Origin: Thiotrichaceae bacterium
GTDB lineage: Bacteria > Pseudomonadota > Gammaproteobacteria > Eutrophobiales > Eutrophobiaceae
DNA length: 40,432 nt
Direction of reading: 5' to 3'
NCBI GenBank assembly: GCA_012960105.1
Contig: DUBV01000007.1
Coordinates: forward strand, 1-40,432
Shown here: positions 12,311 to 40,432 of the stretch, in pieces
How the letters are laid out: each line of letters opens with the position of its first letter
How positions within the stretch are numbered: position 1 is the stretch's first letter
The notes under the pieces: generated by a model
Database searches by the model: none
Told to the model about the DNA's origin: nothing
What the model saw: only the letters and a program-made list of their open reading frames with translations
Translations under genes and position numbers: made by a program

Positions 12311-13819
12311 CTAATGCGTACTTGGTTCCCGGGTTTTTTGCATTACAGTAGATTCTTCCAGTGAATAATCAGATGCGAGTTGTGTAAAGTTTAGGAAAAA
12401 ATCTCCTATTTCAAGAACATCTCCTTCGTGTAACTCTGCCTTTCCAATTTTCTCATCATTGATGTAAACACCATTCATTGAGTTCATGTCAATGATATCA
12501 AAAGTGCCATCGCTGTTTCTATGGATTTCAGCATGACGTCGGGATATAGAAGTATCATCCAGACTTAATTCATTACCTTTACTTCGACCAATTCGCCAAA
12601 TGGTACGTGTGATGGGATATCGTGTTTCATTACCATCATTTTCAATCAAATAAGCATATGGTCTGTATTCATTTTCAGTACTATGTACCTTAGTTTCCGG
12701 TTTTCTCCAAAGAAGAAATAGAGTTATTAATATGAAAATGATAATAATAATGAATGCTGCAGGTAAGCCATACCAAAGCCATAAATTTATGGGTTGTACA
12801 GGAGCTTGTTTCGTTACTATTTGTATTGGTGGAGTGTTAACGGTGTTATTGTTTGTTTGTAACTGTTCTGTAGATGATTTTTTTGTAGCGGCAGGAATAG
12901 TTTGAGCAGCCTTCATTGCAATTTTAATAGTGACAGGAACACTAATATGTTTTATTCCTGCACTTGTTTTAAATGCTAATTTAACGAAAGTCACTGGATT
13001 GTTATTCTGATATAGTTTATTCAAATCTATGGAAAAAGAGCCGCCTGTATCAATATTAATCAAGGTCTGTTTAAAAATATCCTCTGATAAATTGTACGAC
13101 ATATCAGTTTCAATATAGCTTCCACCTGTCTCTTCACTTAATCTTCTTATCGTCTGTAAAGCAACGGATAAGGGGACAGAACGGGGGTAACCAATTGAGT
13201 TTATAATGATTCCGGATTTTCTTGAAAGCTTGATGATGTCTGAATGAAAGTAGGCCTTATCCTCCGCTTGTCCATCAGATAATAAAACGATAACTTTTCG
13301 TTGTGCTTCAAAAGAATTGATATGTTCTATGGCTTTTATCAAGCTCCGATATAACTCTGTTGTTTTTCCTGCAGCTTTTAAAGTATCCAGTGATTTAGTG
13401 AATAGAAATGATGATGTTCCTATTGGTGCCAGGATACGGAAAGTTTTATCGAATGAAGCTAGTCCTGCTTTTTGGTGCGGCTCTAACGATGCTGATAATT
13501 TTTTTATTAGTGCTTTGTTTTTTTCAATAACATTTTGTCTTGCCGGATCACTAGTATCAACGAGGAACAGTATAGCCGTTATGTCATTGCTTTCAGGATA
13601 GTGATTGTTTTCGCTAACTTGTAGTTCTATCTTATTTGAACTTGCGTTTATAAAAGGTGAAGTGGCTTGAGATAGTGTTCTATATTCACAATTTAAAGTT
13701 TTTGCTGTTTGCTGACATTTGATATCAAGTTCATTCGTTAGCTTATTCCACGCAAATGGCTGCCTTGATAATAAAATCAGACATGCAAAAAGTAGTTTTG
13801 GAAATAAATTCTTATTCAA
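12311..13819 (-). CDS. VWA domain - transmembrane helix - FHA domain protein
   Basis: A 502-residue bitopic protein. Residues 1-23 form a signal sequence. A von Willebrand A-like domain covers about 80-250, with ILFLVDTSDP (Asp88) and VIVLLSDGQAED; the third MIDAS residue is Pro instead of Ser, so metal binding may be altered. A Gln/Thr-rich linker leads to one membrane helix (346-371) and a cytoplasmic FHA domain (about 405-480) with intact phosphothreonine-binding residues in WRIGRSKGNEL, SISRRHAEI and NSMNGVYIN. The tail has threonines at 491, 496 and 501. The likely start is TTG at 13819; an upstream ATG is out of frame. It lies 15 bases after the two-helix gene and is probably the last gene of the six-gene minus-strand run. 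Confidence 0.82.
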   Translation of the reverse strand: MNKNLFPKLLFACLILLSRQPFAWNKLTNELDIKCQQTAKTLNCEYRTLSQATSPFINASSNKIELQVSENNHYPESNDITAILFLVDTSDPARQNVIEKNKALIKKLSASLEPHQKAGLASFDKTFRILAPIGTSSFLFTKSLDTLKAAGKTTELYRSLIKAIEHINSFEAQRKVIVLLSDGQAEDKAYFHSDIIKLSRKSGIIINSIGYPRSVPLSVALQTIRRLSEETGGSYIETDMSYNLSEDIFKQTLINIDTGGSFSIDLNKLYQNNNPVTFVKLAFKTSAGIKHISVPVTIKIAMKAAQTIPAATKKSSTEQLQTNNNTVNTPPIQIVTKQAPVQPINLWLWYGLPAAFIIIIIFILITLFLLWRKPETKVHSTENEYRPYAYLIENDGNETRYPITRTIWRIGRSKGNELSLDDTSISRRHAEIHRNSDGTFDIIDMNSMNGVYINDEKIGKAELHEGDVLEIGDFFLNFTQLASDYSLEESTVMQKTREPSTH

Positions 13820-13834
13820 AATAACATCTATTAA

Positions 13835-14350
13835 TTAACCTTTATCCTGAAATAAAGGATCAGGTAAGTCGTAGAATTCAATGTGCACTGATTTCATCCC
13901 GCGTTTTTGTTCGTCAACTTGATTAAACGTGTCATCAGGTTCTTTAAATTCACCCATTTGTTTAATGTCTTTATCTAATTTGGATTTCACATTAATAATT
14001 CTTTCATGTAATTCACTAGAATATTGTAGCTCATAAGCTCTGGGTTCTGCTGAGTCAGACATGTTTTTTATTTCAGTTAACCAAAGATACACTGAGCCTT
14101 CTTTACCTGTTTCTTTGTTAGGTTGAACAACATGAGCGGAAATCAAACGAAACTGTGAAGGAGGATGCTGAGTTGTTGGCCAGCCAAGTAGGGGCGGAAA
14201 TGAATAATAGGTTACTACATAAAAAACAGAGGTAATAATTATTGTCATGGCTTTAACCGGCCAAGACCATTTTGAATAAAGGTTAATACTTAGAAGTAGT
14301 AGTCCAAGTATAATATAAGCTGCAATGATGCCAGTTATGCCTAATGCCAC
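13835..14350 (-). CDS. Two-helix membrane protein of unknown function
   Basis: A 171-residue protein I cannot assign to a family. Two hydrophobic helices (about 3-25 and 33-54) are followed by a soluble domain of about 110 residues. That domain starts with FPPLLGWPTTQHPPSQFRLI, includes VYLWLTEIKN, and ends in a short acidic/Pro segment. With both helices inserted, the C-terminal domain faces the same side as the N-terminus. The start is GTG with a good site (TTGGAGA) eight bases upstream. It sits 27 bases after the MotB-like gene and 15 before the VWA-FHA gene, so it is probably an accessory part of the same membrane complex. Confidence 0.72.
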   Translation of the reverse strand: MALGITGIIAAYIILGLLLLSINLYSKWSWPVKAMTIIITSVFYVVTYYSFPPLLGWPTTQHPPSQFRLISAHVVQPNKETGKEGSVYLWLTEIKNMSDSAEPRAYELQYSSELHERIINVKSKLDKDIKQMGEFKEPDDTFNQVDEQKRGMKSVHIEFYDLPDPLFQDKG

Positions 14351-14377
14351 AATAATTTCTCCAAGTTCTGTTATCTT

Positions 14378-14971
14378 TTAACCAAGTCCTACAAATGATT
14401 TTGGTAAAAAATTTATCCCAAAAATAGTACCTTCACGGCCAATAGTAAATCTAAGTACTGTTTTTTCATCGCCCCTTTTTTCCATATTGACCGTGCCATA
14501 ATAGACGATTTCCAATTTAGGATTCACTTTTGCCAGTCTAACATGCACGTCAACAGGCTTGCCTGTTTCAGAAGCGTAGTAATGCAGGTTAACGACATAC
14601 TCGCCTTTAACCACGCCTCTTAAAGTAACAACTTCCTGATTAAGCGGATTTTGAACTTCTTCGCCATTGATGGTGATAGTGTCATTAACTTGTCCGCGAT
14701 CATCGCGGTCAAGATGTAATAAACCGGCTTCCGGTGTTCTAAACCAGACTATTTGTCCTTCCGGATCTTCGATCCAAACATCAATATCATCTGGGCTATT
14801 ATCTTCCCAGGTGATGGTCAAAATATATTCGGCTTTAGGATCGATAATGCCTGATTTCGCATCAGGGTTCATGAACATGATGGCGATCAAAAACAAAAAG
14901 GTAAATCCTAGAAGTGCATTGAATAGCAAATCAGTAAACGGATCGGAGCGGAGACGATCTTTAACGCGCAT
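14378..14971 (-). CDS. MotB/ExbD-like channel partner with periplasmic beta-sandwich-like domain
   Basis: A 197-residue protein with one N-terminal membrane helix (about 13-33, FTDLLFNALLGFTFLFLIAI). Its Asp14 sits at the start of the helix as in ExbD/TolR/MotB, where that Asp carries the proton. In place of the usual peptidoglycan-binding or ExbD domain, residues 47-190 look like a beta-sandwich. The motif DDIDVWIEDPEGQIVWF followed by LDRDDRG resembles DUF2135/YfaP-type or pre-peptidase-like domains. I infer a stator-type partner of the MotA-like protein encoded 5 bases upstream. The ion-carrier role is from family analogy; the domain match is by eye only. Confidence 0.72.
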   Translation of the reverse strand: MRVKDRLRSDPFTDLLFNALLGFTFLFLIAIMFMNPDAKSGIIDPKAEYILTITWEDNSPDDIDVWIEDPEGQIVWFRTPEAGLLHLDRDDRGQVNDTITINGEEVQNPLNQEVVTLRGVVKGEYVVNLHYYASETGKPVDVHVRLAKVNPKLEIVYYGTVNMEKRGDEKTVLRFTIGREGTIFGINFLPKSFVGLG

Positions 14972-14976
14972 CTTTC

Positions 14977-15720
14977 TTAAGCACCATTAATTTTTGGCAA
15001 GACATGTACTTGCGTTAAGTGGCGAGTTAGTTCGATTAACTCGTCCACGTGACGGTCTATCATATGATATTGCATCGCCGTTAAAATGCTGCAAGATAAA
15101 CCTGCAAGCGTGGTGTAGAGAGCCGTGCCCATACCATTACTCATATGCTGTAAAATTTTCTGCATATTACTAACATCAAAGTTAGCAATGTGAGCAACCG
15201 AACCGAGCATAAGAATAAAACCGATAATCGTACCGAGTAGGCCGAGCTTTAACATCATGTCAGAAACAAACCAGCCAATTTCCTGAGGGCCTTTCAAACG
15301 TGACTCATAAACTTCAATGAGTTCAGAAGGGGAGCCTGCTTCTTCACCTCCAGCCATGTTTTTATTACTGTAAAATAGGTCGCTAATATAATCGCTCATA
15401 AAGCAATCTGGTAGTTTGATGTTAGAGTTTATAAATACATCATCACCTTCTACCTTGATATCCAGTTTATCTTCATCCTTAATCATGCGATCTACTTCTC
15501 TGGATAGATTCATTTGTAAAGAAATGGAATAAATCAATTTGCCGCAATGCAAAGTAACAATTAGGTAAACTAAAGCAATAATCCAGGAGATACGACTTTG
15601 ATCTATGTGAAATAATTGAGATATAATGCCTTCATTCCAGGCAATGAGTAATGAAAATGCGATAAGGCCTGTCAAAATTAGCCATCTAAGCAATAAGCTA
15701 TGTTCTGGTTGTTCCTTCAT
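14977..15720 (-). CDS. MotA/TolQ/ExbB family proton channel protein
   Basis: A 247-residue inner-membrane protein with four predicted helices: about 10-28, 43-66, 150-177 and 193-216. A cytoplasmic loop of about 80 residues lies between helices 2 and 3, giving the MotA arrangement. The conserved channel segment is LKLGLLGTIIGFILMLGSV followed by MSNGMGTALYTTLAGLSCSIL, matching the MotA_ExbB domain. It would form the ring that conducts protons together with the Asp14-bearing protein encoded just downstream. It is not the flagellar MotA: there is no flagellar gene nearby and the partner lacks an OmpA domain. An AAGGA ribosome site is visible before ATG 15720. Confidence 0.85.
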   Translation of the reverse strand: MKEQPEHSLLLRWLILTGLIAFSLLIAWNEGIISQLFHIDQSRISWIIALVYLIVTLHCGKLIYSISLQMNLSREVDRMIKDEDKLDIKVEGDDVFINSNIKLPDCFMSDYISDLFYSNKNMAGGEEAGSPSELIEVYESRLKGPQEIGWFVSDMMLKLGLLGTIIGFILMLGSVAHIANFDVSNMQKILQHMSNGMGTALYTTLAGLSCSILTAMQYHMIDRHVDELIELTRHLTQVHVLPKINGA

Positions 15721-15760
15721 TGTTCTGCTTGTTCCTTACAGTTTAGCTTCCGTGCTGTAA

Positions 15761-16234
15761 TTAATTTTGCTCAAGAAGAAATGGATCTTCAGATGCAGCG
15801 TAGTCTACCACTGAGCGTAGAATGTTATTGATTTTTTTTGCGATTTTATCCATTTTTTTATTGCCAGTTTTCTCTGGCAACAAACGTGTTCCAATAATGA
15901 TTTTTTTACCTACTTCGGTTGCGGTTATTTTATAGGGACAATAATTAATATAAAGAGGTTCAATTATTAGCATCTCTTCTACCAAGGTTAAATTACAAAA
16001 TAAAATGACTTCGTTCTGAGGAAAGTTAGCATTACCGCGTTTCTGAATAGCTTCGCCGATATGTAATCGATTGGTTATGCGAAAATTATTTTCAGTGATT
16101 GCAAATTCACTATCCTGAATAACATGGGCAAATATTTTTTTTGTGCGTTTTTCATAAATCTGATTAGATTCATTTGAGCATGCAACAAGTGATATCAAAA
16201 AACAAAGGGCAACATATTGAGAGAGGATTTTCAT
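15761..16234 (-). CDS. DUF302 family lipoprotein
   Basis: A 157-residue protein starting with a lipoprotein signal, lipobox LVAC with Cys19. The mature part has DUF302 features: ViQDSEFAITENNFRITNRL, then HIGEAIQKRG, EVILFCNLTLVEEML and NYCPYKITATEVGKKIIIGT, with the two conserved cysteines of the fCN and yCPy motifs. The function of DUF302 proteins is unknown. Its ATG overlaps the stop of the L,D-transpeptidase gene (ATGA), so the two are translationally coupled. The MotA-like gene starts 40 bases downstream, which ties this lipoprotein to the envelope module. Confidence 0.82.
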   Translation of the reverse strand: MKILSQYVALCFLISLVACSNESNQIYEKRTKKIFAHVIQDSEFAITENNFRITNRLHIGEAIQKRGNANFPQNEVILFCNLTLVEEMLIIEPLYINYCPYKITATEVGKKIIIGTRLLPEKTGNKKMDKIAKKINNILRSVVDYAASEDPFLLEQN

Positions 16235-16794
16235 TCTTTAATAATGACAGGTGTTCCGATATCGACAAATTTTCTCAGTTCATTTATTTCTTCATTTGTT
16301 AAGGCAATGCAGCCTTCTGTCCAGTTAATTTCTTCATGGATAACAATTTTTTTTTCATTTTGTTCACCAAGCCCATGAATTCCTATAAAACCACCGAGCT
16401 TAGTATCTTGTGGAGGTGCGGTATGTTTTTTGTAGGCCGTAGCTATCCGTTTAAAATCCTTTGCATCAATGACTTTGTTTTTATAGCCATACCAGGCATC
16501 GATAAGGTTAGGGTAATCCAGTTGTATGAAATAATGGAAACGGCTACTTTTTTTAAATTGTGAGATCCGGTAAACCCCTTGTGGCGTCTTACTATCGCCT
16601 TGGCGACGTTTTGTTCCTTTGCCCCCCTTACCGCTGGAGATACGGTATTTTTTAACGACTTCACCGGCTTTTTTTACGATTAACTCGTTATTTTTTTTTG
16701 AAATCAAGATTTGATACTCACTGGCTTGCGCCAATGGGATGCAAAATAGCAGGAACATTAAAAAGAAAGAATTTAAATTAGACCGCATATACAT
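16231..16794 (-). CDS. L,D-transpeptidase family protein (YkuD domain)
   Basis: A 187-residue exported enzyme with a signal peptide ending at AQA (about residue 24). The YkuD catalytic region holds IGIHGLGE and, further on, NWTEGCIALTNEEINELR, where Cys is the nucleophile and His the partner. The T-x-G-C-I-A-L form is closer to the YafK/DpaA-like subgroup than to classic S-H-G-C enzymes, so it may either cross-link peptidoglycan or release an attached lipoprotein. I prefer ATG 16794 because an AAGGAAA site lies about ten bases upstream. ATG 16788 is possible, and the longer frame from 16869 has no signal-peptide logic. It is first in the minus-strand run. Confidence 0.86.
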   Translation of the reverse strand: MYMRSNLNSFFLMFLLFCIPLAQASEYQILISKKNNELIVKKAGEVVKKYRISSGKGGKGTKRRQGDSKTPQGVYRISQFKKSSRFHYFIQLDYPNLIDAWYGYKNKVIDAKDFKRIATAYKKHTAPPQDTKLGGFIGIHGLGEQNEKKIVIHEEINWTEGCIALTNEEINELRKFVDIGTPVIIKE

Positions 16795-16976
16795 TATTCG
16801 TAGGCTTTCCTTTAAAATTGGAAATATTCGTAATTTAAAAATGATAAGCAATTCACTGCCAAATATCATCCTGAGATAGTATTATCCTTGATATTCTCCT
16901 AAGAAAAAAGTCTGAAAGCCGGTGTGCTTGTCTTTTCAGCTATAAATCAGAAAACAGAGGCCCTTGGATATTTATT

Positions 16977-30124: not shown

Positions 30125-31381
30125 ATGAAAATATTAATAATTGATGACTCCCGTGATTTCAGAGCCTTATTAAGGTTGTATCTAAATAAGGAACTGAAAG
30201 ATGTCGAAATAATTGAGTACGATTTTGACAAACTGGGTAAACCAGTAGAAAACTATGATTGGTCTCCTTATGATATTTTATTTTTAGATTATAAACTTGG
30301 GCCTCATGAGGATGGTTTAGAGTGGTTAAAAGAATTTAGAGATAAGCCGGGCTTTCCGCCTACGATCGTTTTAACTGCTGAAGGTGATGAATATGTTGCT
30401 GTTAAATCAATTAAGTTAGGCGCTGCTGATTATATTAATAAAGTCGATATCAAACCTAAACGTATTGCTGAAATGGTTGATGAAGCGACTGAGTTTTCAA
30501 AGCGTTCTAATACTTCTCAAGAAAAGGAACTAGATGACGCAACAAGAATAATCAAAAAAGTTATTAAAACTGAATCAGTTCTGGATACAAGCCTAAATAT
30601 TGGTTATAAATTTGTTCGAATGATCGGCGAAGGTGCCATGTCCAAGGTTTATTTGGCAGAACGTGTTAAAGATAAAATGACCCTCGTATTAAAAGTGCTT
30701 GACCTAACACGTGTTAAAGTACATGAACCAAAATTGATTCAACGGTTTATACAAGAAGCAAAGCTCATATCAGAATTAAACTCTCCATTTGTCGTGAAAA
30801 TATTTGACCACGGTCTTACTGAAGAATACGGTTATATAGCTATGGAATTCTTTTCTCGGGGCGATCTTAAACAACGTGCCGAGTTAGGTTTAGATCATGA
30901 GATTGCGACGATTTATGCGACTCATATTGCTTATGGCCTGGAGCAAATCCATGCAATAAATGTTGTGCATCGAGATCTTAAGCCAGCAAACCTTATGTTT
31001 CGTGGAGATGATAGTCTTGTTCTGGCTGATTTTGGGATCTCGAAAAAATTAGATGAGATTAATGACATTACTACAATGGGGAAAATATTGGGAACGCCCC
31101 ATTATATGAGTCCTGAACAAGGGGAAGGGGCTAGTGTCGATGCGCGTACCGATCTTTATAGTTTAGGTGTGTTGTATTATGAATTGCTAACTGGAAAGAA
31201 ACCTTTTTCGGCAGCAACAGCGGCGGCGCTAATATATCAGCATGTACATGCGCCGATACCTACCTTGCCTGATGAATTAAAGCAGTACCAAAGCATTATT
31301 GATTTACTCCTGGCTAAAAAAGCCGATGATCGTATGCAAACTGCCCGTGAACTAATTATTGCCTTAGAAGCATTTCAATAA
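30125..31381 (+). CDS. Receiver domain - serine/threonine protein kinase fusion
   Basis: A 418-residue cytoplasmic signalling protein. Residues 1-125 form a CheY-like receiver with Asp7/Asp8, phospho-acceptor Asp55 (LFLDYKLG), Thr84 and Lys106. Residues 159-418 are a Hanks-type kinase with glycine loop IGEGAMSKVYLAE, catalytic Lys190, Glu211, VVHRDLKPANLMF (Asp284), ADFGISKK, an activation loop with Thr316/Thr317, and GTPHYMSPEQ. All kinase key residues are present, so it should be active. There is no membrane helix. The fusion implies that an aspartate phosphorelay controls Ser/Thr phosphorylation. It lies 51 bases after the RND gene and may be co-transcribed. Its histidine kinase partner is not identifiable here. 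Confidence 0.92.
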   Translation: MKILIIDDSRDFRALLRLYLNKELKDVEIIEYDFDKLGKPVENYDWSPYDILFLDYKLGPHEDGLEWLKEFRDKPGFPPTIVLTAEGDEYVAVKSIKLGAADYINKVDIKPKRIAEMVDEATEFSKRSNTSQEKELDDATRIIKKVIKTESVLDTSLNIGYKFVRMIGEGAMSKVYLAERVKDKMTLVLKVLDLTRVKVHEPKLIQRFIQEAKLISELNSPFVVKIFDHGLTEEYGYIAMEFFSRGDLKQRAELGLDHEIATIYATHIAYGLEQIHAINVVHRDLKPANLMFRGDDSLVLADFGISKKLDEINDITTMGKILGTPHYMSPEQGEGASVDARTDLYSLGVLYYELLTGKKPFSAATAAALIYQHVHAPIPTLPDELKQYQSIIDLLLAKKADDRMQTARELIIALEAFQ

Positions 31382-31406: not shown

Positions 31407-32639
31407 CTAACTTTGTTGGATGAGTTCTGAATTTTTCTTTAACAATTCAAGCCACCATTGTGCCTGTTCATTGGTTGATTTATCAGATAAGGCCTGAGTA
31501 AACGCACGTGTAGCCATAGGTAAATTTTCAGAATGATATTGGCCTATACCTAATAAAAGATTAATTTTAGAGAGTAATACTTTATCTCTAGACTCAAGTT
31601 TTACATTCAGTATTTCTACAGCTTTTCCCCATTCTTCTGAATCAAGATAAAGTTGGCCTAAACGAAGTCTGGCCGTATCATCGTTAAACTTTTTAATGAT
31701 TTCCTTGAATACGGATTTTGCTTTATCTCTTTCTTGCGCGAGCAACCAACTATCGACTAACAGGTTGAGCATTTTTTTATTAGGTTCAATATCACCGACA
31801 GCCATTTCTTTTTCTATAAGGTTTGCTGCTTTCAGCGGCATATCCATATAATGATAACTTTTAATTAACTGAATGATACCTTCTTTTTTTAATAACTCTT
31901 GTTTGTAAGCAAGCTCATAAACGGCTAATGATTTTTTATCTTGTTCCAGTTGCTGATAAATTCCGGCAAGCTGTAACCAATAGTCTTTTTTGTCGGGATG
32001 TTTTGAAATAATTGTTTCAAGAATAAGCGCTGCATTCTTATAATCTTTTGTTTCATAGTACCCGGCTAATAATAGTTCATGCCAGTTTAACGGTGCTTTT
32101 TTTGAAAGTGCGATGGCTTTTTCTACATGTACGATTAATTGCTTATAGTCTTCAGTGTAATAATAAGCGGTTGCAGCTAGTATATGTGCTTCTGCTTTTG
32201 GTTTAGCTTCATCAGCGAACCATTTGGATAAAAACTTTAAACCTTCTTTCGGTTTTTCTATATGTATTAATAATTGAGCTGTAGAAAAGTATAAGTCGTG
32301 CGTAACTTCTTTTGGTAATGCATTTAAAGAGAGCGCTTTTATGAAATGTTTGGCTGAGCTTTTAAAATTGGTCAGTCCGTTTTCAGCAAACCCCATAGTT
32401 TGATAGACAACGGCGGCATCGTAATTTTTTAATTTGTCGGATGAAATTAGAGTGTTTAATTTTTCTAGCGCTTCGGCATTATTACCTGCCTGCATACTTT
32501 TATGTGCTTCACTCAGCACAGAATGAGTGCTTGCTTGTAATAAATAAGTTTCTTCTTTTGCTAGTGCATAATGGCTACAAAATAAAAAAAGCGTAATGAA
32601 TACGGAAATTAGTTTGAATTTTATAAAAGAATTATTCAT
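31407..32639 (-). CDS. TPR repeat protein of the TonB2-type operon
   Basis: A 410-residue exported protein. The signal peptide runs to about residue 27, and the rest is built of tandem helical repeats. Examples are AHKSMQAGNNAEALEKLNTL, YYETKDYKNAALILETIISK and LYLDSEEWGKAVEILNVKL, each matching the tetratricopeptide pattern (W-L-G-Y-A-F-A-P type spacing). Its ATG overlaps the tonB stop (ATGA), so it is coupled to the energy genes. It probably assists the TonB complex or its receptors in the periplasm; that role is inferred from position. Confidence 0.85.
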   Translation of the reverse strand: MNNSFIKFKLISVFITLFLFCSHYALAKEETYLLQASTHSVLSEAHKSMQAGNNAEALEKLNTLISSDKLKNYDAAVVYQTMGFAENGLTNFKSSAKHFIKALSLNALPKEVTHDLYFSTAQLLIHIEKPKEGLKFLSKWFADEAKPKAEAHILAATAYYYTEDYKQLIVHVEKAIALSKKAPLNWHELLLAGYYETKDYKNAALILETIISKHPDKKDYWLQLAGIYQQLEQDKKSLAVYELAYKQELLKKEGIIQLIKSYHYMDMPLKAANLIEKEMAVGDIEPNKKMLNLLVDSWLLAQERDKAKSVFKEIIKKFNDDTARLRLGQLYLDSEEWGKAVEILNVKLESRDKVLLSKINLLLGIGQYHSENLPMATRAFTQALSDKSTNEQAQWWLELLKKNSELIQQS

Positions 32640-33328
32640 CGTTGTAATTTGAATTTTACATCTTGTCTGGCACGTTTTTCCACCGGTTTTCCATCAACCA
32701 TATCAGGGCTAAATTTCCAACGGCTAATTGATTTTAAAACGGCTTTATCAAAAATCTTCGGTGGTTTAGCTTTCACAACGACGGCATCTTTGACTGAACC
32801 ATCAGCAGAAATAGTAAACTCGACAGTTACTACGCCTTCTATACCACTACGCAAGGCTCGAGCAGGATAGACGGGTGGAATTCGTAATGTAGGTACAACA
32901 TTAGTATCAATTTTAGGCCTGGCAGGTTTGGCTCTTGGTTTGTTTCTCTTCATGCTCTTTGCAAAGTCACCAAGATACGGGGTGCCGGATAGAGATAAAG
33001 GAATATCTATTTCAGGTAAGGTCAACTCCATTTGCATAACTTGAGCTTGTTCAATTTGAGGTTGCAGTACCTCCGGCGGTGGCGGTTCTTGCTCCGGCGG
33101 TGGTTGTTCTAGGTCTTCAATATTTTTTTCTTGTGTTGGTGGTTCTATCTTTTGTTCAAGACGGATAAAATCAACTAAATTGATAGCTTCCAGTTTAATA
33201 ATAAATCCATTTTCTTTATTAACTAATTGCTGGATAAGAATAAATATTGCGAAGTTAAAAAGCAGAGCTAGTAAAATAAATGAGGGGAGTTTCGTTATCT
33301 CCAATATATGTTGTTTTGATAGTTGCAT
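32636..33328 (-). CDS. tonB: TonB-family energy transducer
   Basis: A 230-residue TonB. One N-terminal membrane helix (about 13-34) is followed by a Glu/Pro-rich periplasmic spacer (EQPPPEQEPPPPEVLQPQ) and a basic patch (KRNKPRAKPARPK). The C-terminal TonB domain has PPVYPARALRSGIEGVVTVE, ADGSVKDAVVV and FDKAVLKSISRWKFSP. It transfers proton-motive-force energy to outer-membrane receptors. ATG 33328 is preferred to an in-frame TTG at 33337, although neither has a clear ribosome site. Short spacers link it to exbD on one side and the TPR gene on the other. Confidence 0.92.
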   Translation of the reverse strand: MQLSKQHILEITKLPSFILLALLFNFAIFILIQQLVNKENGFIIKLEAINLVDFIRLEQKIEPPTQEKNIEDLEQPPPEQEPPPPEVLQPQIEQAQVMQMELTLPEIDIPLSLSGTPYLGDFAKSMKRNKPRAKPARPKIDTNVVPTLRIPPVYPARALRSGIEGVVTVEFTISADGSVKDAVVVKAKPPKIFDKAVLKSISRWKFSPDMVDGKPVEKRARQDVKFKLQR

Positions 33329-33350
33329 GAGTCGCAAAAGGAAAAATTAA

Positions 33351-33755
33351 CTAATCGTTAGACGCCGCGATAGAAACATTTGTTACTCCTGCTAAACGCA
33401 CTTGATCTAACACTGCAACAGTAAGTCCTGTTCGAGAATCTTTGTCAGCGAGTATAATCACGGTTCCTTCAGGATTTTGTGCATGGTTATGCTCCACATG
33501 CGCTCGAACTGCTCGCAAATCAATTTTCTGATTTTCCATCCATATCTCACCATCCTTATTGATGCCTATAATCATACTACCTTGTTCTTCTCTAACAGCC
33601 GTTTGCGCAGTAGGCCGGTCAACATCTATTCCTGATTCTTTAGTGAAGGATGCCGTCACTAGAAAGAAAATGAGTAAGATAAATACCATATCAATGAGCG
33701 GCGTCATGTTAACGCTTTCCGCTGCTGTTTCTTGTTTCGAATGTGTATGTCTCAT
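33351..33755 (-). CDS. exbD: ExbD/TolR biopolymer transport protein
   Basis: A 134-residue ExbD. After a short cytoplasmic start comes the single helix VNMTPLIDMVFILLIFFLV with the proton-carrying Asp22, then the periplasmic domain (ESGIDVDRPTAQTAVREEQG, IGINKDGEIWMENQKI) ending VRLAGVTNVSIAA, all as in the ExbD family. It begins two bases after the exbB stop and sits 22 bases before the tonB start. It works with ExbB and TonB. Confidence 0.95.
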   Translation of the reverse strand: MRHTHSKQETAAESVNMTPLIDMVFILLIFFLVTASFTKESGIDVDRPTAQTAVREEQGSMIIGINKDGEIWMENQKIDLRAVRAHVEHNHAQNPEGTVIILADKDSRTGLTVAVLDQVRLAGVTNVSIAASND

Positions 33756-33757
33756 AA

Positions 33758-34273
33758 TTAGTTATGTGCTAATAATTCTTTTGCGAATAATTCTTTTGAT
33801 TTAGTGCGTTTGTTTAAATCCGCACTAAAGTAAATGCCAATGATAGATGTCACCAGCCCCGCTGTTGTCGGCAATAGTGCTTTGGAAATACCATCAGCCA
33901 TGCCACGAGCATTGCCATTTCCAAAAACATTGAGCACTTCAAAAATAGCAATCATTCCAGTAACCGTACCTAGCAAACCTAATAAAGGTAGTATTCCGGT
34001 TAATGCCTGTATAGGAATTAAATTATGTTTGAGCGAAATTGATAATTCGCTTAAAAAACCATCGCGTATTTTTAAGGCATACCATGACGAATGTTCTCGT
34101 CGGCGATGCCATTGGTTCACAATTGTTTCTAGACGCTTAGGATAAATTTTGTATAGAAAGTAATAGCGTTCAAGAATTAATATCCATAAAAAAATAGATA
34201 AGACAAAGACGCTGGTTAATACCGGGCCACCTTTAGCAAAAAAATCTCGTAATATGTCTATTTGATCAAGCAT
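33758..34273 (-). CDS. exbB: ExbB/TolQ-type proton channel (TonB2-like short form)
   Basis: A 171-residue three-helix channel protein. The first helix GGPVLTSVFVLSIFLWILIL is followed by a cytoplasmic segment with basic residues (KRLETIVNQWHRRREHSSW). The conserved pair of channel helices is LTGILPLLGLLGTVTGMIAIF and GISKALLPTTAGLVTSIIGIYF. The short length resembles ExbB2 of Vibrio TonB2 systems rather than E. coli ExbB (244 residues). Its start overlaps the end of the TtpC-like gene by 8 bases. Confidence 0.93.
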   Translation of the reverse strand: MLDQIDILRDFFAKGGPVLTSVFVLSIFLWILILERYYFLYKIYPKRLETIVNQWHRRREHSSWYALKIRDGFLSELSISLKHNLIPIQALTGILPLLGLLGTVTGMIAIFEVLNVFGNGNARGMADGISKALLPTTAGLVTSIIGIYFSADLNKRTKSKELFAKELLAHN

Positions 34274-35612
34274 TATTTCTTAAGCGATTTATTTCAGCGA
34301 GTAGGGCGACGAATGCTGTACTTTTTTCATCAAGTATTTGAACTAATGTATTACTCTTTGATGAAAGAAAGCTATGGAATAACAACAGAGGTATCGCGAC
34401 AAGTAATCCCATTACTGTCGTTACCAATGCTTGTGAAATACCGCCGGACATCGTGCGTGGATCACCCGTGCCATATAAGGTGATCGATTGAAATGTTTCA
34501 ATGATACCTGTGACTGTTCCTAATAAGCCTAATAACGGGGATATAGCGGCAAGTAATGCTAAGGCTCCTAATCCACGTTGAATTCGTGGCATTTCTTTTA
34601 AAATAGCTTCATCCAGTTTTAAACCCAGGGTTTCTGTACCTACATCAGGGTTGGCTTCATAAACCTGCATGATACGACCAAGTGGGTTGTCTCCCGGTTT
34701 TCTACTTTTAAGTTGTTTTTTAACTTTACGCCCGGTCAGTACTAATACGATTAATCGTTCTAATGATATTAATACTCCTATAAAACCAACAATGATAATG
34801 ACATAACCAATGAGGCCGCCTTGTACTATGCGTTCCTTCATGTTTGGTTTTTGAACTAGCAGTGCCAGCATTGCACCACGTGTAGGATCGATAGGAAAGG
34901 CGTGAATTCCTGAAGTGGCATTTTCAAGATCTTGTGCCATATTTCGGAATCGATCGCCGGGTTGTCTACCGGGTTCGATTAACTTTCCTGTTTCAGGCAG
35001 GTTTCTTAAGAATTGTCCGTTTGATACGGCATTAAATACACCAATACGGGTGACTTCCTGTTCAACTTCATTACCTGCGGCGGTAATTATTTTTCCTTTG
35101 AAGGTGACTACTTTGCCGGACTCGACCATTTCGTCCATGGCTAGTATCCATAGCTCTTCCAGTTCTTGTAACGAAGGCAACTCTTTTCGGCTGGACAGAA
35201 TATCAAGTATTTTATCGCGATCAGGTTTTTGTGCTGAAACAATAGATGTATCGATAATGACATCGAGATCACCAGCAATTTGCTTGACGATGCCATCAAG
35301 CTCTCCAAGCGCCCCCATTTTTTCTTTTAAAACGATGTTTTGTCTGGCGATAGTTTGATCATAACTAGCGTAGCTTTTTCTTAGAGATTCACTACGCTTT
35401 TCATCTGCTTCAAGTTTTTTTAATGCGGCATTCAAAATTTGTTTTTGTTTGTGACGCGCTTTTTTAAATTTCATTTCGCGTATGGCCAGTTGTTCTTTTT
35501 CTTGCGCGCGATCTTCTTTTACTTGCTCTAGCAGTTCTTGCAGACTTGTGGGTTCTGCTGCAAATGTAGGAGTAAGAAATAAAACCAGACTTATTAAGAT
35601 TAATTTATTCAT
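34266..35612 (-). CDS. TtpC-like long MotA/TolQ/ExbB protein of TonB2 system
   Basis: A 448-residue protein with a signal peptide (to about residue 18), a long charged coiled coil (about 20-115) in the periplasm, a soluble section to about 265, and a C-terminal three-helix MotA_TolQ_ExbB domain: GLIGYVIIIVGFIGVLISLE, then LGALALLAAISPLLGLLGTV and GISQALVTTVMGLLVAIPLL. This architecture and its place next to DUF3450, ExbB, ExbD and TonB match TtpC, the fourth component of TonB2 systems in Vibrio and relatives. It lies two bases after the DUF3450 gene. Confidence 0.9.
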   Translation of the reverse strand: MNKLILISLVLFLTPTFAAEPTSLQELLEQVKEDRAQEKEQLAIREMKFKKARHKQKQILNAALKKLEADEKRSESLRKSYASYDQTIARQNIVLKEKMGALGELDGIVKQIAGDLDVIIDTSIVSAQKPDRDKILDILSSRKELPSLQELEELWILAMDEMVESGKVVTFKGKIITAAGNEVEQEVTRIGVFNAVSNGQFLRNLPETGKLIEPGRQPGDRFRNMAQDLENATSGIHAFPIDPTRGAMLALLVQKPNMKERIVQGGLIGYVIIIVGFIGVLISLERLIVLVLTGRKVKKQLKSRKPGDNPLGRIMQVYEANPDVGTETLGLKLDEAILKEMPRIQRGLGALALLAAISPLLGLLGTVTGIIETFQSITLYGTGDPRTMSGGISQALVTTVMGLLVAIPLLLFHSFLSSKSNTLVQILDEKSTAFVALLAEINRLRNNA

Positions 35613-35614
35613 AA

Positions 35615-36385
35615 TTATTTTCCTGCCACGTTGACAGGCAATTTAATTAGCTCAGGCGGCGCCTGTTTTTTTGCTATTTGTAGGCCTTGTTTAATAGAAC
35701 GGTTGTATTCCGAAGGTAATTTTTTCCATGCATTAAATTCTTTGTCCCAAGTGCCACTGACGTTGCCATCCAGTGTTTGGAATGTCATAAGTAATCGGCC
35801 GACGCGTAATATGTCTACGGTATATTCCTTATCATCCATCTTGATGGTGTCGGTATAGCTTTCTATGGTGCGACCATATTCCATTTCAATTTGATAGGAT
35901 TCCATAATACGGCGATATTTTTCAGGTAGAGTTACGTCTGGACGATCCATAATTTCTTTTAAACTAGCGACGCGTTGTTGTCGTTCTTCGAGTAAAAACG
36001 GAATATCTAAACCGACAAATTTACCCAGAGTATCTATCATTTTCAACATGAGTGGAACGATGCTGCGTTGCGTTTCTTCGACATTATCAAGTTGACGTTT
36101 AATCGCATTTAGATCTTTTTTCTGTTGCTTTATTAATTTGGCTAATTGAGTGTTATAGGTGCCAAGACTGTTAGATTTTCGGATAGCATTACGATATTCC
36201 TGAGCTAAATCTCTAGTCTGCTCAACTAATGAATCAACTTTCTTTTGCGATGTGACAACATCGTTTTGTCCCTGCAGTTTAGTTTCGACGGCTGATTTTA
36301 ATGCTTCAGTTTCTGCCGCTGAGATATTAGAGAGAGTAAGGCCAAAAATAAGAGTGCCGAGTAAGGATTTAATGAGCTTATCCAT
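35615..36385 (-). CDS. DUF3450 family periplasmic coiled-coil protein
   Basis: A 256-residue protein with a signal peptide ending near ISA-AE (residue 24) and a predominantly coiled-coil body (QKKVDSLVEQTRDLAQEYRN, QQKKDLNAIKRQLDNVEETQ), then MLKMIDTLGKFVGLDIPFLL and a C-terminal beta-rich part with LRVGRLLMTFQTLDGNVSG. DUF3450 genes are habitually found first in TonB2/TtpC operons, as here. The molecular role is not established; a periplasmic partner of the coiled coil in TtpC is a reasonable inference. Confidence 0.9.
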   Translation of the reverse strand: MDKLIKSLLGTLIFGLTLSNISAAETEALKSAVETKLQGQNDVVTSQKKVDSLVEQTRDLAQEYRNAIRKSNSLGTYNTQLAKLIKQQKKDLNAIKRQLDNVEETQRSIVPLMLKMIDTLGKFVGLDIPFLLEERQQRVASLKEIMDRPDVTLPEKYRRIMESYQIEMEYGRTIESYTDTIKMDDKEYTVDILRVGRLLMTFQTLDGNVSGTWDKEFNAWKKLPSEYNRSIKQGLQIAKKQAPPELIKLPVNVAGK

Positions 36386-38633: not shown

Positions 38634-39587
38634 CTAGTCGTTAATAACCACGCCCCATGGAAATTTACCAACTTCAATAGTTTTGATAACTTCATTTTTA
38701 TCGGTATCTATTACTGAAACGGTACTGCTGACGCCATCAGTGGTAAATAGACGTTTACCATCTTTAGACATCGCTAAACCCCATGTACGTTTTCCTACAG
38801 GGATGCCTTTGATAATTTCGAGTGTATCAGCATCCATAACAATGATTTTATTTGCTCTGCCACCGGCCACGTAAATTACTTTTTCATCTTTGCTTAAAAC
38901 AACATCTTTTGGTTTTGACTTACTATCACCTGTGGAGCCAGTTTTAATAATCTTTGCGTTGATCATGTCTACCTTAACGACTTCTCCACTAATTTCAGCT
39001 GTTGCATAAGCGATATCACCAGATTGACTGAAGGTTGCGGCACGTGGACGAGAACCAATAAGAATATTATTTTCTATTGTATTTCCCGGCACGGTAATGA
39101 CGTGCAACATATTTGTTGATTCACTGGTGATAATTACACGTTTGCCATCAGGAGAAATTGCCACGCCTTCAGGTTCTAATCCCACTTTGATCTCAGCAAT
39201 TTGTTCCCCTGTCTTTGGATTAAATACGGTTGCTTTGGCATCGTCTTCATTGGAAATATAAATATTGCCATTAGGATGCACAGCGAATGTTTCCGGATCA
39301 GAACCCGCTTCAAATTCTCTAATGATTTTTAGTGAAACAGGATCGACAACCTTGATTTTATTTTCTTCACTTACTGCAATATAGAGTTCAGCGCCATCTG
39401 GGGAGAGGCCAATGCCGCGTGGACGTTCGCCTATTTCAATCGTTGCTTCTACTTCTAATGTAGAGCCATTAATAACTGAAACAGAATCACTTCGTTCATT
39501 AGTAATAAAAATCCGTCCGGATGGTGCAGCTAATACTGAATTCGCAAGTACTGCTAATAGTATTAATGGCATAAATAATAATTTCAT
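38634..39587 (-). CDS. PQQ-associated YVTN beta-propeller protein (TIGR03866-like)
   Basis: A 317-residue periplasmic protein with a signal peptide ending SVLA-AP. The mature part is made of about seven YVTN-type blades, each with a pattern such as I-F-I-T-N-E-R-S-D-S-V-S-V-I, E-V-E-A-T-I-E-I-G-E-R-P-R-G-I and L-S-P-D-G. Blade ends like LYIAVSEENKIKVVD and KRLFTTDGVSSTVSVID repeat along the chain. The length and neighbour match the beta-propeller of PQQ-dependent alcohol catabolism clusters. Its exact role is unknown. A good AGGAG ribosome site precedes ATG 39587. A palindromic element separates it from the gene upstream. Confidence 0.85.
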   Translation of the reverse strand: MKLLFMPLILLAVLANSVLAAPSGRIFITNERSDSVSVINGSTLEVEATIEIGERPRGIGLSPDGAELYIAVSEENKIKVVDPVSLKIIREFEAGSDPETFAVHPNGNIYISNEDDAKATVFNPKTGEQIAEIKVGLEPEGVAISPDGKRVIITSESTNMLHVITVPGNTIENNILIGSRPRAATFSQSGDIAYATAEISGEVVKVDMINAKIIKTGSTGDSKSKPKDVVLSKDEKVIYVAGGRANKIIVMDADTLEIIKGIPVGKRTWGLAMSKDGKRLFTTDGVSSTVSVIDTDKNEVIKTIEVGKFPWGVVIND

Positions 39588-39793: not shown

Positions 39794-40432
39794 TTATTTT
39801 TTGCAGTCTAGCATCCCAAGGCTGTCTAATGTGGGAGGTTTGGCTATACCACGAACAGGTGCTTCTGCAACAATGTTGTCTTTTTCAACTAACAATAAAA
39901 GCTGTCGTAATTGTCCGGTTTTTCTAAAATTCATATTGCTGCCTTTTTGACCATCAAAGGTTAATTCTGTTTTTAGATAAAGTAACATCTCTGCTGGTTT
40001 GACAATTTTAGTTCTTGCAACCGTGTCCGATGTCATTTTAATTGCGGCCCAACCTGCCCATGAATAATCATCCATGGTTGTATGCTGATTTTTTTTAAAA
40101 CGTTTATTTAGATCACGTGCGGCAAATTTTACAAAGTCAGGATGCCAGGCGTTTGCTTCGGCTTTAGAATCAGATATTTTTTTCTGCCATTGGGATATCG
40201 CATCTGCTTTCATGCTTACACTTGGAATAATATGCAATGCATTATTGATGCATGCTGTTCGTAAACTATCGTTATCTATCGATAAATTAAACACGGGAGT
40301 ATTTGGTGAGCTTGTACTAAGGTTTGTAAAAACTTCAGCATCAACTGCTGTTAATATGGCTATGTATTTAGAGAAATCATGTGCAGATGAATCGCTTTCT
40401 GAAATAACATCAAGTTTATATTTTTGATTTAA
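39794..40432 (-). CDS. PQQ-linked ABC transporter substrate-binding protein, 3' part (TIGR03863-like, partial)
   Basis: The frame is open from the window edge to a TAA at 39794-39796, so about 212 C-terminal residues are visible and the 5' end lies outside. The protein resembles the substrate-binding protein of the PQQ-dependent alcohol dehydrogenase ABC system. Matching blocks are AWHPDFVKFAARDLNKRFKK, YSWAGWAAIKMTSDTVARTK, NFRKTGQLRQLLLLVEKDNI and a C-terminal L-D-S-L-G-M-L-D-C ending with a Cys. A GTG at 40294 is an internal codon, not the start, because the frame continues upstream without a stop. Assignment is by recall of the family's C-terminus; no database was searched. Confidence 0.75.
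   Translation of the reverse strand, partial: LNQKYKLDVISESDSSAHDFSKYIAILTAVDAEVFTNLSTSSPNTPVFNLSIDNDSLRTACINNALHIIPSVSMKADAISQWQKKISDSKAEANAWHPDFVKFAARDLNKRFKKNQHTTMDDYSWAGWAAIKMTSDTVARTKIVKPAEMLLYLKTELTFDGQKGSNMNFRKTGQLRQLLLLVEKDNIVAEAPVRGIAKPPTLDSLGMLDCKK

What the first reader, a model, noticed from the sequence alone, without database searches (positions are those of the whole stretch)
12311..16794. Six-gene envelope module: L,D-transpeptidase, lipoprotein, proton channel, beta-sandwich partner, VWA-FHA
Six minus-strand genes are packed with gaps of 40 bases or less, one ATGA overlap, and no visible terminator inside. Seen: a YkuD enzyme, a DUF302 lipoprotein, a MotA-type four-helix channel, an Asp14-bearing single-helix partner, a two-helix protein and a VWA-TM-FHA protein. 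Known: MotA/TolQ-type channels pair with single-helix Asp partners to couple proton flow to periplasmic work. Inferred: this set couples proton-motive force to an adhesive or force-bearing VWA protein, under phosphothreonine control and near the peptidoglycan. I know of no named system with this gene content.
Basis: partly seen in the sequence, partly recalled or inferred. Interest (0 to 1): 0.72.

Follow-up and report, generated by a model that had tools for sequence, protein, structure and literature searches.

The report
Proton-motor module tied to lanthanide enzymes
These genes encode an undescribed, widely conserved three-protein membrane machine that probably runs on proton flow and carries a likely metal-binding domain outside the inner membrane; it is tied to bacteria that oxidise alcohols with (probably rare-earth-dependent) PQQ enzymes, and some viruses of bacteria carry the same three genes.

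Summary
The six minus-strand genes are real and tightly packed. Comparison splits them into a conserved core and lineage-specific extras. The core is MotA-like, MotB-like and a two-helix protein, adjacent and in that order in nearly every locus examined, across Gamma- and Alphaproteobacteria and delta/Nitrospirae MAGs. The MotA-like protein keeps the ExbB/TolQ pore motifs, and Asp14 of the MotB-like protein is the family's membrane Asp. So a proton-driven 5:2-type motor is well supported, though no complex could be modelled. The MotB-like periplasmic domain is predicted to have the fold of TerD, a calcium-binding protein (Z 11.8), with invariant acidic residues. Neither the MotB-like nor the two-helix family has a Pfam, NCBIfam or PHROG model. 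Of 24 such enzymes in or near these loci, 22 carry the extra Asp typical of lanthanide enzymes. Rhizobial and metagenomic phages carry the same triad. A metal or cofactor role is inferred, not shown.

The parts
14977..15720 (-). core gene 1: MotA/TolQ/ExbB-type four-helix channel protein, 247 aa
   Evidence: PF01618 E 1.3e-10 over cut-off; invariant G160 G163 T164 G167 F168 and G196 A200 T203 T204 over 43 relatives
14378..14971 (-). core gene 2: MotB/ExbD-like protein; one helix (11-34) with Asp14 and a periplasmic beta-sandwich of predicted TerD fold with invariant acidic residues D62 D64 D90 D91 E113
   Evidence: no Pfam, NCBIfam or PHROG family
13835..14350 (-). core gene 3: two-helix protein with a small periplasmic domain (OB-like arrangement, weak), 171 aa, conserved GWP, W90 and P103-R104
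   Evidence: no known family
12311..13819 (-). branch-A accessory: signal peptide, VWA domain, one helix, cytoplasmic FHA domain
   Evidence: PF00092 1.2e-10 and PF00498 5.4e-20; found only in part of branch A
15761..16234 (-). branch-A accessory: DUF302 lipoprotein (lipobox LVAC)
   Evidence: PF03625 7.8e-7 over cut-off
16231..16869 (-). branch-A accessory: YkuD L,D-transpeptidase-family protein, resembling LdtF/DpaA (YafK); a start at 16794 is likely
   Evidence: PF03734 2.6e-22; NF040599 1.3e-14 over part of the model, below cut-off
38634..39587 (-). context: PQQ-associated beta-propeller (TIGR03866)
   Evidence: 322 bits, cut-off 287.3
39794..40432 (-). context: substrate-binding protein of the PQQ-dependent alcohol dehydrogenase ABC system (TIGR03863), cut by the window end

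Best explanation
The core (MotA-like, MotB-like, two-helix) is a proton-driven motor of the 5:2 type. A MotA-like pentamer surrounds a MotB-like dimer; protons pass Asp14 and the threonine-lined pore and turn or pull the dimer, which moves its TerD-like, probably Ca2+/Ln3+-binding domain in the periplasm beside the domain of the two-helix protein. Accessories couple this movement to different envelope partners: L,D-transpeptidase, DUF302 lipoprotein and VWA-FHA in branch A (this window), a 230-aa lipoprotein in branch B. In branches A and B the machine most likely serves the periplasmic PQQ alcohol-oxidation system, by energising handling of the metal or cofactor, or assembly of the (mostly lanthanide-type) dehydrogenase. 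Shown by computation: gene conservation, pore and Asp motifs, predicted fold, co-occurrence and linkage. Inferred: stoichiometry, proton flow, metal binding and the role in PQQ-enzyme physiology.
For: Core order conserved across phyla. Pore motifs and Asp14. TerD-like fold: the top VIA-align rows are TerD-family or equal-fold structures at Z 9.1-11.8, with the next at 6.8; one is titled as a calcium-binding TerD. The only profile alignment with TerD, though not significant, puts W55 on W29 and D62/D64 on the TerD DxD, and the structural alignment starts in the same register. D62 D64 R89 D90 D91 G93 E113 are invariant across chromosomal and phage members. PQQ link: 28 of 37 genomes with the module have a PQQ alcohol dehydrogenase, against 36 of 332 without (odds ratio 25.6); 16 of 16 families with accessory-bearing modules against 25 of 166; at least 8 loci within 20 kb of a dehydrogenase against about 4% expected. 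PedF, SoxYZ-like, quinoprotein-relay hydrolase, CXXCW and PedC/PQQ-ABC genes are direct neighbours. Of 24 such dehydrogenases, 22 have the WD-x-D lanthanide-type Asp (signature described in PMC11845868).
Against: A third branch (bare core, 8 genomes with only this form) has no PQQ dehydrogenase, so the core can work without it. 36 PQQ-positive genomes lack the module, so it is not required. Sequence homology to TerD is not significant (hhalign probability 0.4%, E 0.14). No metal binding, complex or phenotype has been measured. Co-occurrence is partly phylogenetic, and the PQQ cut-off (E 1e-60) was chosen after seeing the data.
Confidence: 0.45

Rival explanations
1. A generic envelope-homeostasis motor (Tol-like: coupling inner membrane, peptidoglycan and outer membrane). 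The PQQ association reflects shared lifestyle, not a direct role.
For: Bare-core branch without PQQ enzymes, in small genomes beside housekeeping genes; in branch A the site beside TilS/AccA/DnaE is conserved; L,D-transpeptidase and lipoprotein partners point to peptidoglycan and outer membrane.
Against: PQQ accessory genes recur as direct neighbours on several separate branches; all accessory-bearing families sampled have a PQQ dehydrogenase.
Confidence: 0.3
2. One reading: a proton-driven adhesive, gliding or force-bearing VWA machine under phosphothreonine control.
For: VWA and FHA domains with conserved binding motifs; vWA proteins paired with TolQ-like motors are proposed as force transducers (PMC12204202).
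Against: The VWA-FHA gene is missing from branches B and C and from part of branch A; its helix follows the VWA domain and carries no Asp, unlike the published motor-bound vWA families; MIDAS is mostly DTSDP rather than DxSxS.
Confidence: 0.1
3. A TonB-like energiser dedicated to lanthanide, lanthanophore or PQQ import across the outer membrane.
For: TonB-dependent receptor genes lie near some loci; PQQ/lanthanide ABC genes are neighbours; lanthanide import is known to use a TonB-dependent receptor and ABC transporter (PMC7391723).
Against: No TonB-type protein in the module, and a conventional ExbB/ExbD/TonB set is encoded separately at window 31.4-36.4 kb.
Confidence: 0.1
4. A phage-defence or superinfection-exclusion device like Zorya.
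For: Weak ZorA matches for the MotA-like protein; rhizobial and metagenomic phages carry the triad.
Against: No ZorB match and no other PADLOC match; conserved position beside TilS/AccA/DnaE in branch A; kept in small genomes.
Confidence: 0.05

Closest known systems
ExbBD / TolQR / MotAB ion-driven 5:2 motors
   Same: MotA_ExbB channel domain with GLLGT and A..TT pore motifs; single-helix partner with a conserved membrane Asp (FTD/PFxD)
   Different: Partner has a TerD-like beta-sandwich instead of an ExbD/TolR or OmpA domain; an obligate third two-helix protein; no Pfam or NCBIfam model for partners 2 and 3
vWA force-transducer families next to TolQ-like motors (Mol Biol Evol 2025, PMC12204202)
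   Same: TolQ-like motor gene near a vWA protein
   Different: There the vWA protein itself carries the motor-binding or transpore helix; here a separate MotB-like protein does, the VWA protein is optional and has a cytoplasmic FHA domain
TerD family (tellurite resistance; calcium-binding beta-sandwich)
   Same: Predicted fold, Z 11.8 over 135 residues; DxD and an acidic loop in a matching order
   Different: Membrane-anchored and predicted periplasmic; sequence homology not significant
Ped / Lut systems (PedA1A2BC, LutABEFH) for lanthanide-dependent PQQ alcohol dehydrogenases
   Same: Frequent neighbours of the module; members also inside this window at 38.6-40.4 kb
   Different: No MotA/MotB-type core was reported in the lut and ped clusters described in the papers read
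Zorya ZorAB
   Same: MotA/ExbB domain distantly like ZorA
   Different: No ZorB-like partner, no further Zorya genes, short MotA-like protein

Membership tests
MotA/TolQ/ExbB family (PF01618) | match over the curated cut-off, with helix-3 GxxGT and helix-4 AxxTT pore residues | tested here: met
   41.5 bits against cut-off 22.9; invariant G160 G163 T164 and A200 T203 T204
5:2 ion-driven motor | pentamer:dimer stoichiometry and ion-driven rotation | not testable with these tools
   no multimer prediction or experiment available
MotB/ExbD/TolR partner | single N-terminal helix with conserved Asp near its start | tested here: met
   helix 11-34; D14 invariant over chromosomal, distant and phage members, replaced only in one subfamily
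MotB/ExbD/TolR partner | ExbD/TolR or OmpA-like periplasmic domain | tested here: not met
   no ExbD or OmpA match in Pfam or NCBIfam at E 1; predicted TerD-like fold instead
TerD (PF02342) | TerD fold | tested here: met
   VIA-align Z 9.1-11.8 to TerD-family chains, well above the next rows at 6.8; a predicted model
TerD (PF02342) | sequence homology | tested here: inconclusive
   no Pfam match; hhalign probability 0.4%, E 0.14, but a matching register of W and DxD
vWA force transducers of PMC12204202 | vWA protein with an N-terminal SHLS helix or an Asp-bearing transpore helix | tested here: not met
   helix lies after the VWA domain and contains no Asp (sequence); a separate MotB-like gene is present
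Zorya | ZorA plus ZorB plus effector genes | tested here: not met
   PADLOC: only weak ZorA matches to the MotA-like protein
lanthanide-dependent PQQ alcohol dehydrogenase (neighbours) | extra Asp two residues after the catalytic Asp | tested here: met
   22 of 24 aligned enzymes have D, 2 have S; four lack the catalytic Asp itself
YkuD L,D-transpeptidase | YkuD domain over cut-off | tested here: met
   80.4 bits against 23.4

The most novel reading that the evidence does not exclude
A new class of ion-driven motor whose moving part is a TerD-like Ca2+/Ln3+-binding domain: a proton-powered metal-handling machine that loads, strips or delivers lanthanides (or PQQ) for periplasmic alcohol dehydrogenases, and that tailed phages have captured for their own use.
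Probability: 0.2. Interest if true: 0.9.

Novelty: new variant of a known kind. Interest (0 to 1): 0.7.

Why it matters
Very few proton-driven 5:2 motors have an assigned job. This is a widespread, unnamed family with two protein families that have no domain model, a predicted metal-binding rotor domain not described for such motors, and a strong genomic tie to lanthanide-type alcohol oxidation in marine and soil bacteria. Lanthanide handling in the periplasm is an open field, and the module gives it a directly testable candidate. Phage copies raise the question of what a virus gains from a membrane motor.

Tried and rejected
Asp10 rather than Asp14 as the proton residue: suggested by the first alignment (Asp14 lost in four sequences), rejected when distant and phage members showed Asp14 invariant and Asp10 not. 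A DUF2135-like domain, recalled from memory: no Pfam support; the fold search pointed to TerD. TerD membership by sequence: not significant. Two-helix protein fold: only OB-like arrangements at Z 6.4 or less, inconclusive. Defence system: PADLOC gave only weak ZorA matches. Plasmid copies of the MotA-like protein: none; a distant MotB match in Azospirillum replicons was not followed. Rfam and tRNA scans of the window: nothing. A VWA gene 1.8 kb from the triad in phage RHph_I1_18 is separated by tRNAs, looks like another kind of VWA protein, and was set aside. Literature searches found no description of this gene set; the library is open-access only.
Full report
The observation. Families: YkuD, DUF302, MotA_ExbB, VWA and FHA are over Pfam cut-offs, while the MotB-like and two-helix proteins match no model in Pfam, NCBIfam or PHROGs. 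Terminator-like sites are at chance level.

Conservation. The MotB-like protein is found in 41 of 369 genomes of the class and in at least 384 places of the species-level genome collection, in Gamma- and Alphaproteobacteria and in MAGs labelled Deltaproteobacteria, Betaproteobacteria and Nitrospirae. MotA-like, MotB-like and two-helix genes are adjacent and in that order in almost every locus. A tree of the three concatenated proteins and the neighbourhoods sort the loci into: branch A, with L,D-transpeptidase, DUF302 lipoprotein and often VWA-FHA, usually beside TilS-AccA-DnaE (this window); branch B, with a 230-aa lipoprotein as the next gene and none of the branch-A extras (HIMB59-type Alphaproteobacteria, Thiothrix, Thiodiazotropha and others); and branch C, a bare three-gene core. 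A few loci mix these states.

The motor. Across 43 MotA-like proteins the invariant residues include G160 G163 T164 G167 of helix 3 and G196 A200 T203 T204 of helix 4, the pore motifs of ExbB/TolQ (established knowledge of that family). The MotB-like protein has one helix, 11-34, beginning DPFTDLLF. In an alignment including distant and phage members, Asp14 is invariant and Asp10 is not. One subfamily has DPITAVLFK instead and often two copies of the two-helix gene; it may be non-conducting or may use Asp10. I could not model the complex.

The periplasmic domain. AlphaFold2 predicts a beta-sandwich with confidence (pLDDT 87). Foldseek alone gives nothing significant. VIA-align ranks TerD-family or same-fold chains first at Z 9.1-11.8 over about 130 residues, the next row being 6.8. 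One of them is titled for the calcium-binding properties of TerD. A profile comparison with TerD proteins collected here is not significant, but its single alignment puts W55 on TerD W29 and D62/D64 on the TerD DxD; the structural alignment starts in the same register. D62, D64, R89, D90, D91, G93 and E113 are invariant in chromosomal and phage members. I infer a metal site of Ca2+ type; lanthanides commonly occupy such sites. This is not shown. The two-helix protein has two helices and a small domain with conserved GWP, W90 and P103-R104 and no clear fold match.

The functional context. Neighbours of branch-B loci include, over NCBIfam cut-offs, a PQQ methanol/ethanol dehydrogenase, cytochrome PedF, SoxYZ-like carrier, quinoprotein relay hydrolase, CXXCW protein, PedC-type permease, PQQ beta-propeller and PQQ substrate-binding protein. 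Branch-A loci L101, L105 and L176 have a dehydrogenase nearby, and L072, L079 and L109 the beta-propeller and binding protein. In this window the PQQ beta-propeller (over cut-off) and the binding protein lie at 38.6-40.4 kb, about 22 kb from the module, with a two-component pair beside them, and the genome has several PQQ dehydrogenase genes. Over the 369 genomes, 28 have both module and dehydrogenase, 9 module only, 36 dehydrogenase only and 296 neither (odds ratio 25.6). The nine exceptions are branch-C genomes plus one 64%-complete MAG. By family, 16 of 16 with accessory-bearing modules have the enzyme against 25 of 166 others. At least eight loci lie within 20 kb of a dehydrogenase, against about 4% expected per locus; the expectation is rough. 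Of 19 genomes behind named loci, ten of them HIMB59-type, 15 have the enzyme over cut-off and three more have partial matches. In the alignment of 24 dehydrogenases from these loci or the same genomes, 22 have the extra Asp that marks lanthanide-dependent enzymes and 2 have Ser; four of the 22 have Gly at the catalytic Asp (signature from PMC11845868). PedA1A2BC and Lut, the systems to which the ABC neighbours belong or are related, import lanthanides (PMC6839425, PMC7391723).

Limits of the link. Branch C has the core without PQQ enzymes, and many PQQ genomes lack the module. Metal or cofactor handling for PQQ enzymes is therefore the best-supported role for branches A and B, not for the family as a whole. 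Genome handles in the genome search are unnamed, so names beyond record titles are guesses.

Phages. The MotB-like gene occurs in 27 rhizobial phage records, including phage 16-3 and Pootjesviridae. In the 150-170 kb phages it sits between a short MotA-like gene and a two-helix gene, and metagenomic viral contigs L203, L205 and L207 carry triads beside phage genes. The MotA-like protein of L203 passes the PF01618 cut-off. In phage 16-3 and X2_25 the upstream gene did not align as MotA-like. I found no paper on this.

Verdict. Closest known kind: the ExbBD/TolQR/MotAB motors, of which this is a new variant with its own rotor domain and third subunit.

Noticed in passing
L197, L199, L200 (rhizobial phages RHph_I1_9, RHph_I1_18, RL38J1); L198 (phage 16-3); L203, L205, L207 (IMG/VR): Tailed phages carry the MotA-like, MotB-like, two-helix triad, annotated only as hypothetical proteins. 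A trypsin-like peptidase gene is adjacent or near in 16-3, X2_25, I3_11 and the prophage-like locus L165.
   Followed up: partly
L068, L101, L113, L115, L139, L176: A MotB-like subfamily has lost Asp14 (DPITAVLFK or similar); most of these loci carry a second two-helix gene: perhaps a non-conducting or differently gated version.
   Followed up: partly
window 31407-36385: A separate ExbB-ExbB-ExbD-TonB-TPR cluster with a DUF3450-like gene, followed by a two-component pair and PQQ-system genes.
   Followed up: partly
L135, L136 (genomes G119 and G235): Close relatives of this genome carry a second, diverged copy of the module next to a PQQ dehydrogenase; the window's own genome has only one copy.
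   Followed up: partly
window 30125-31381: A response regulator fused to a Ser/Thr protein kinase, a possible phosphate source for the FHA domain, 13 kb from the module.
   Followed up: no
MotB-like profile A2 against PDB 11pb and PHROG 1735: Weak matches (E 0.45 and 0.02-0.05) to a phage virion structural protein and an unknown phage family over the same acidic beta-sandwich stretch.
   Followed up: no
L099, L104, L171, L175: PQQ-dehydrogenase homologues in which the catalytic Asp is Gly while the lanthanide-type Asp is kept; L175 is in the window's own genome.
   Followed up: no
L122, L123: Branch-C cores sit beside a gene for a PP2C-type phosphatase (about 620 aa).
   Followed up: no
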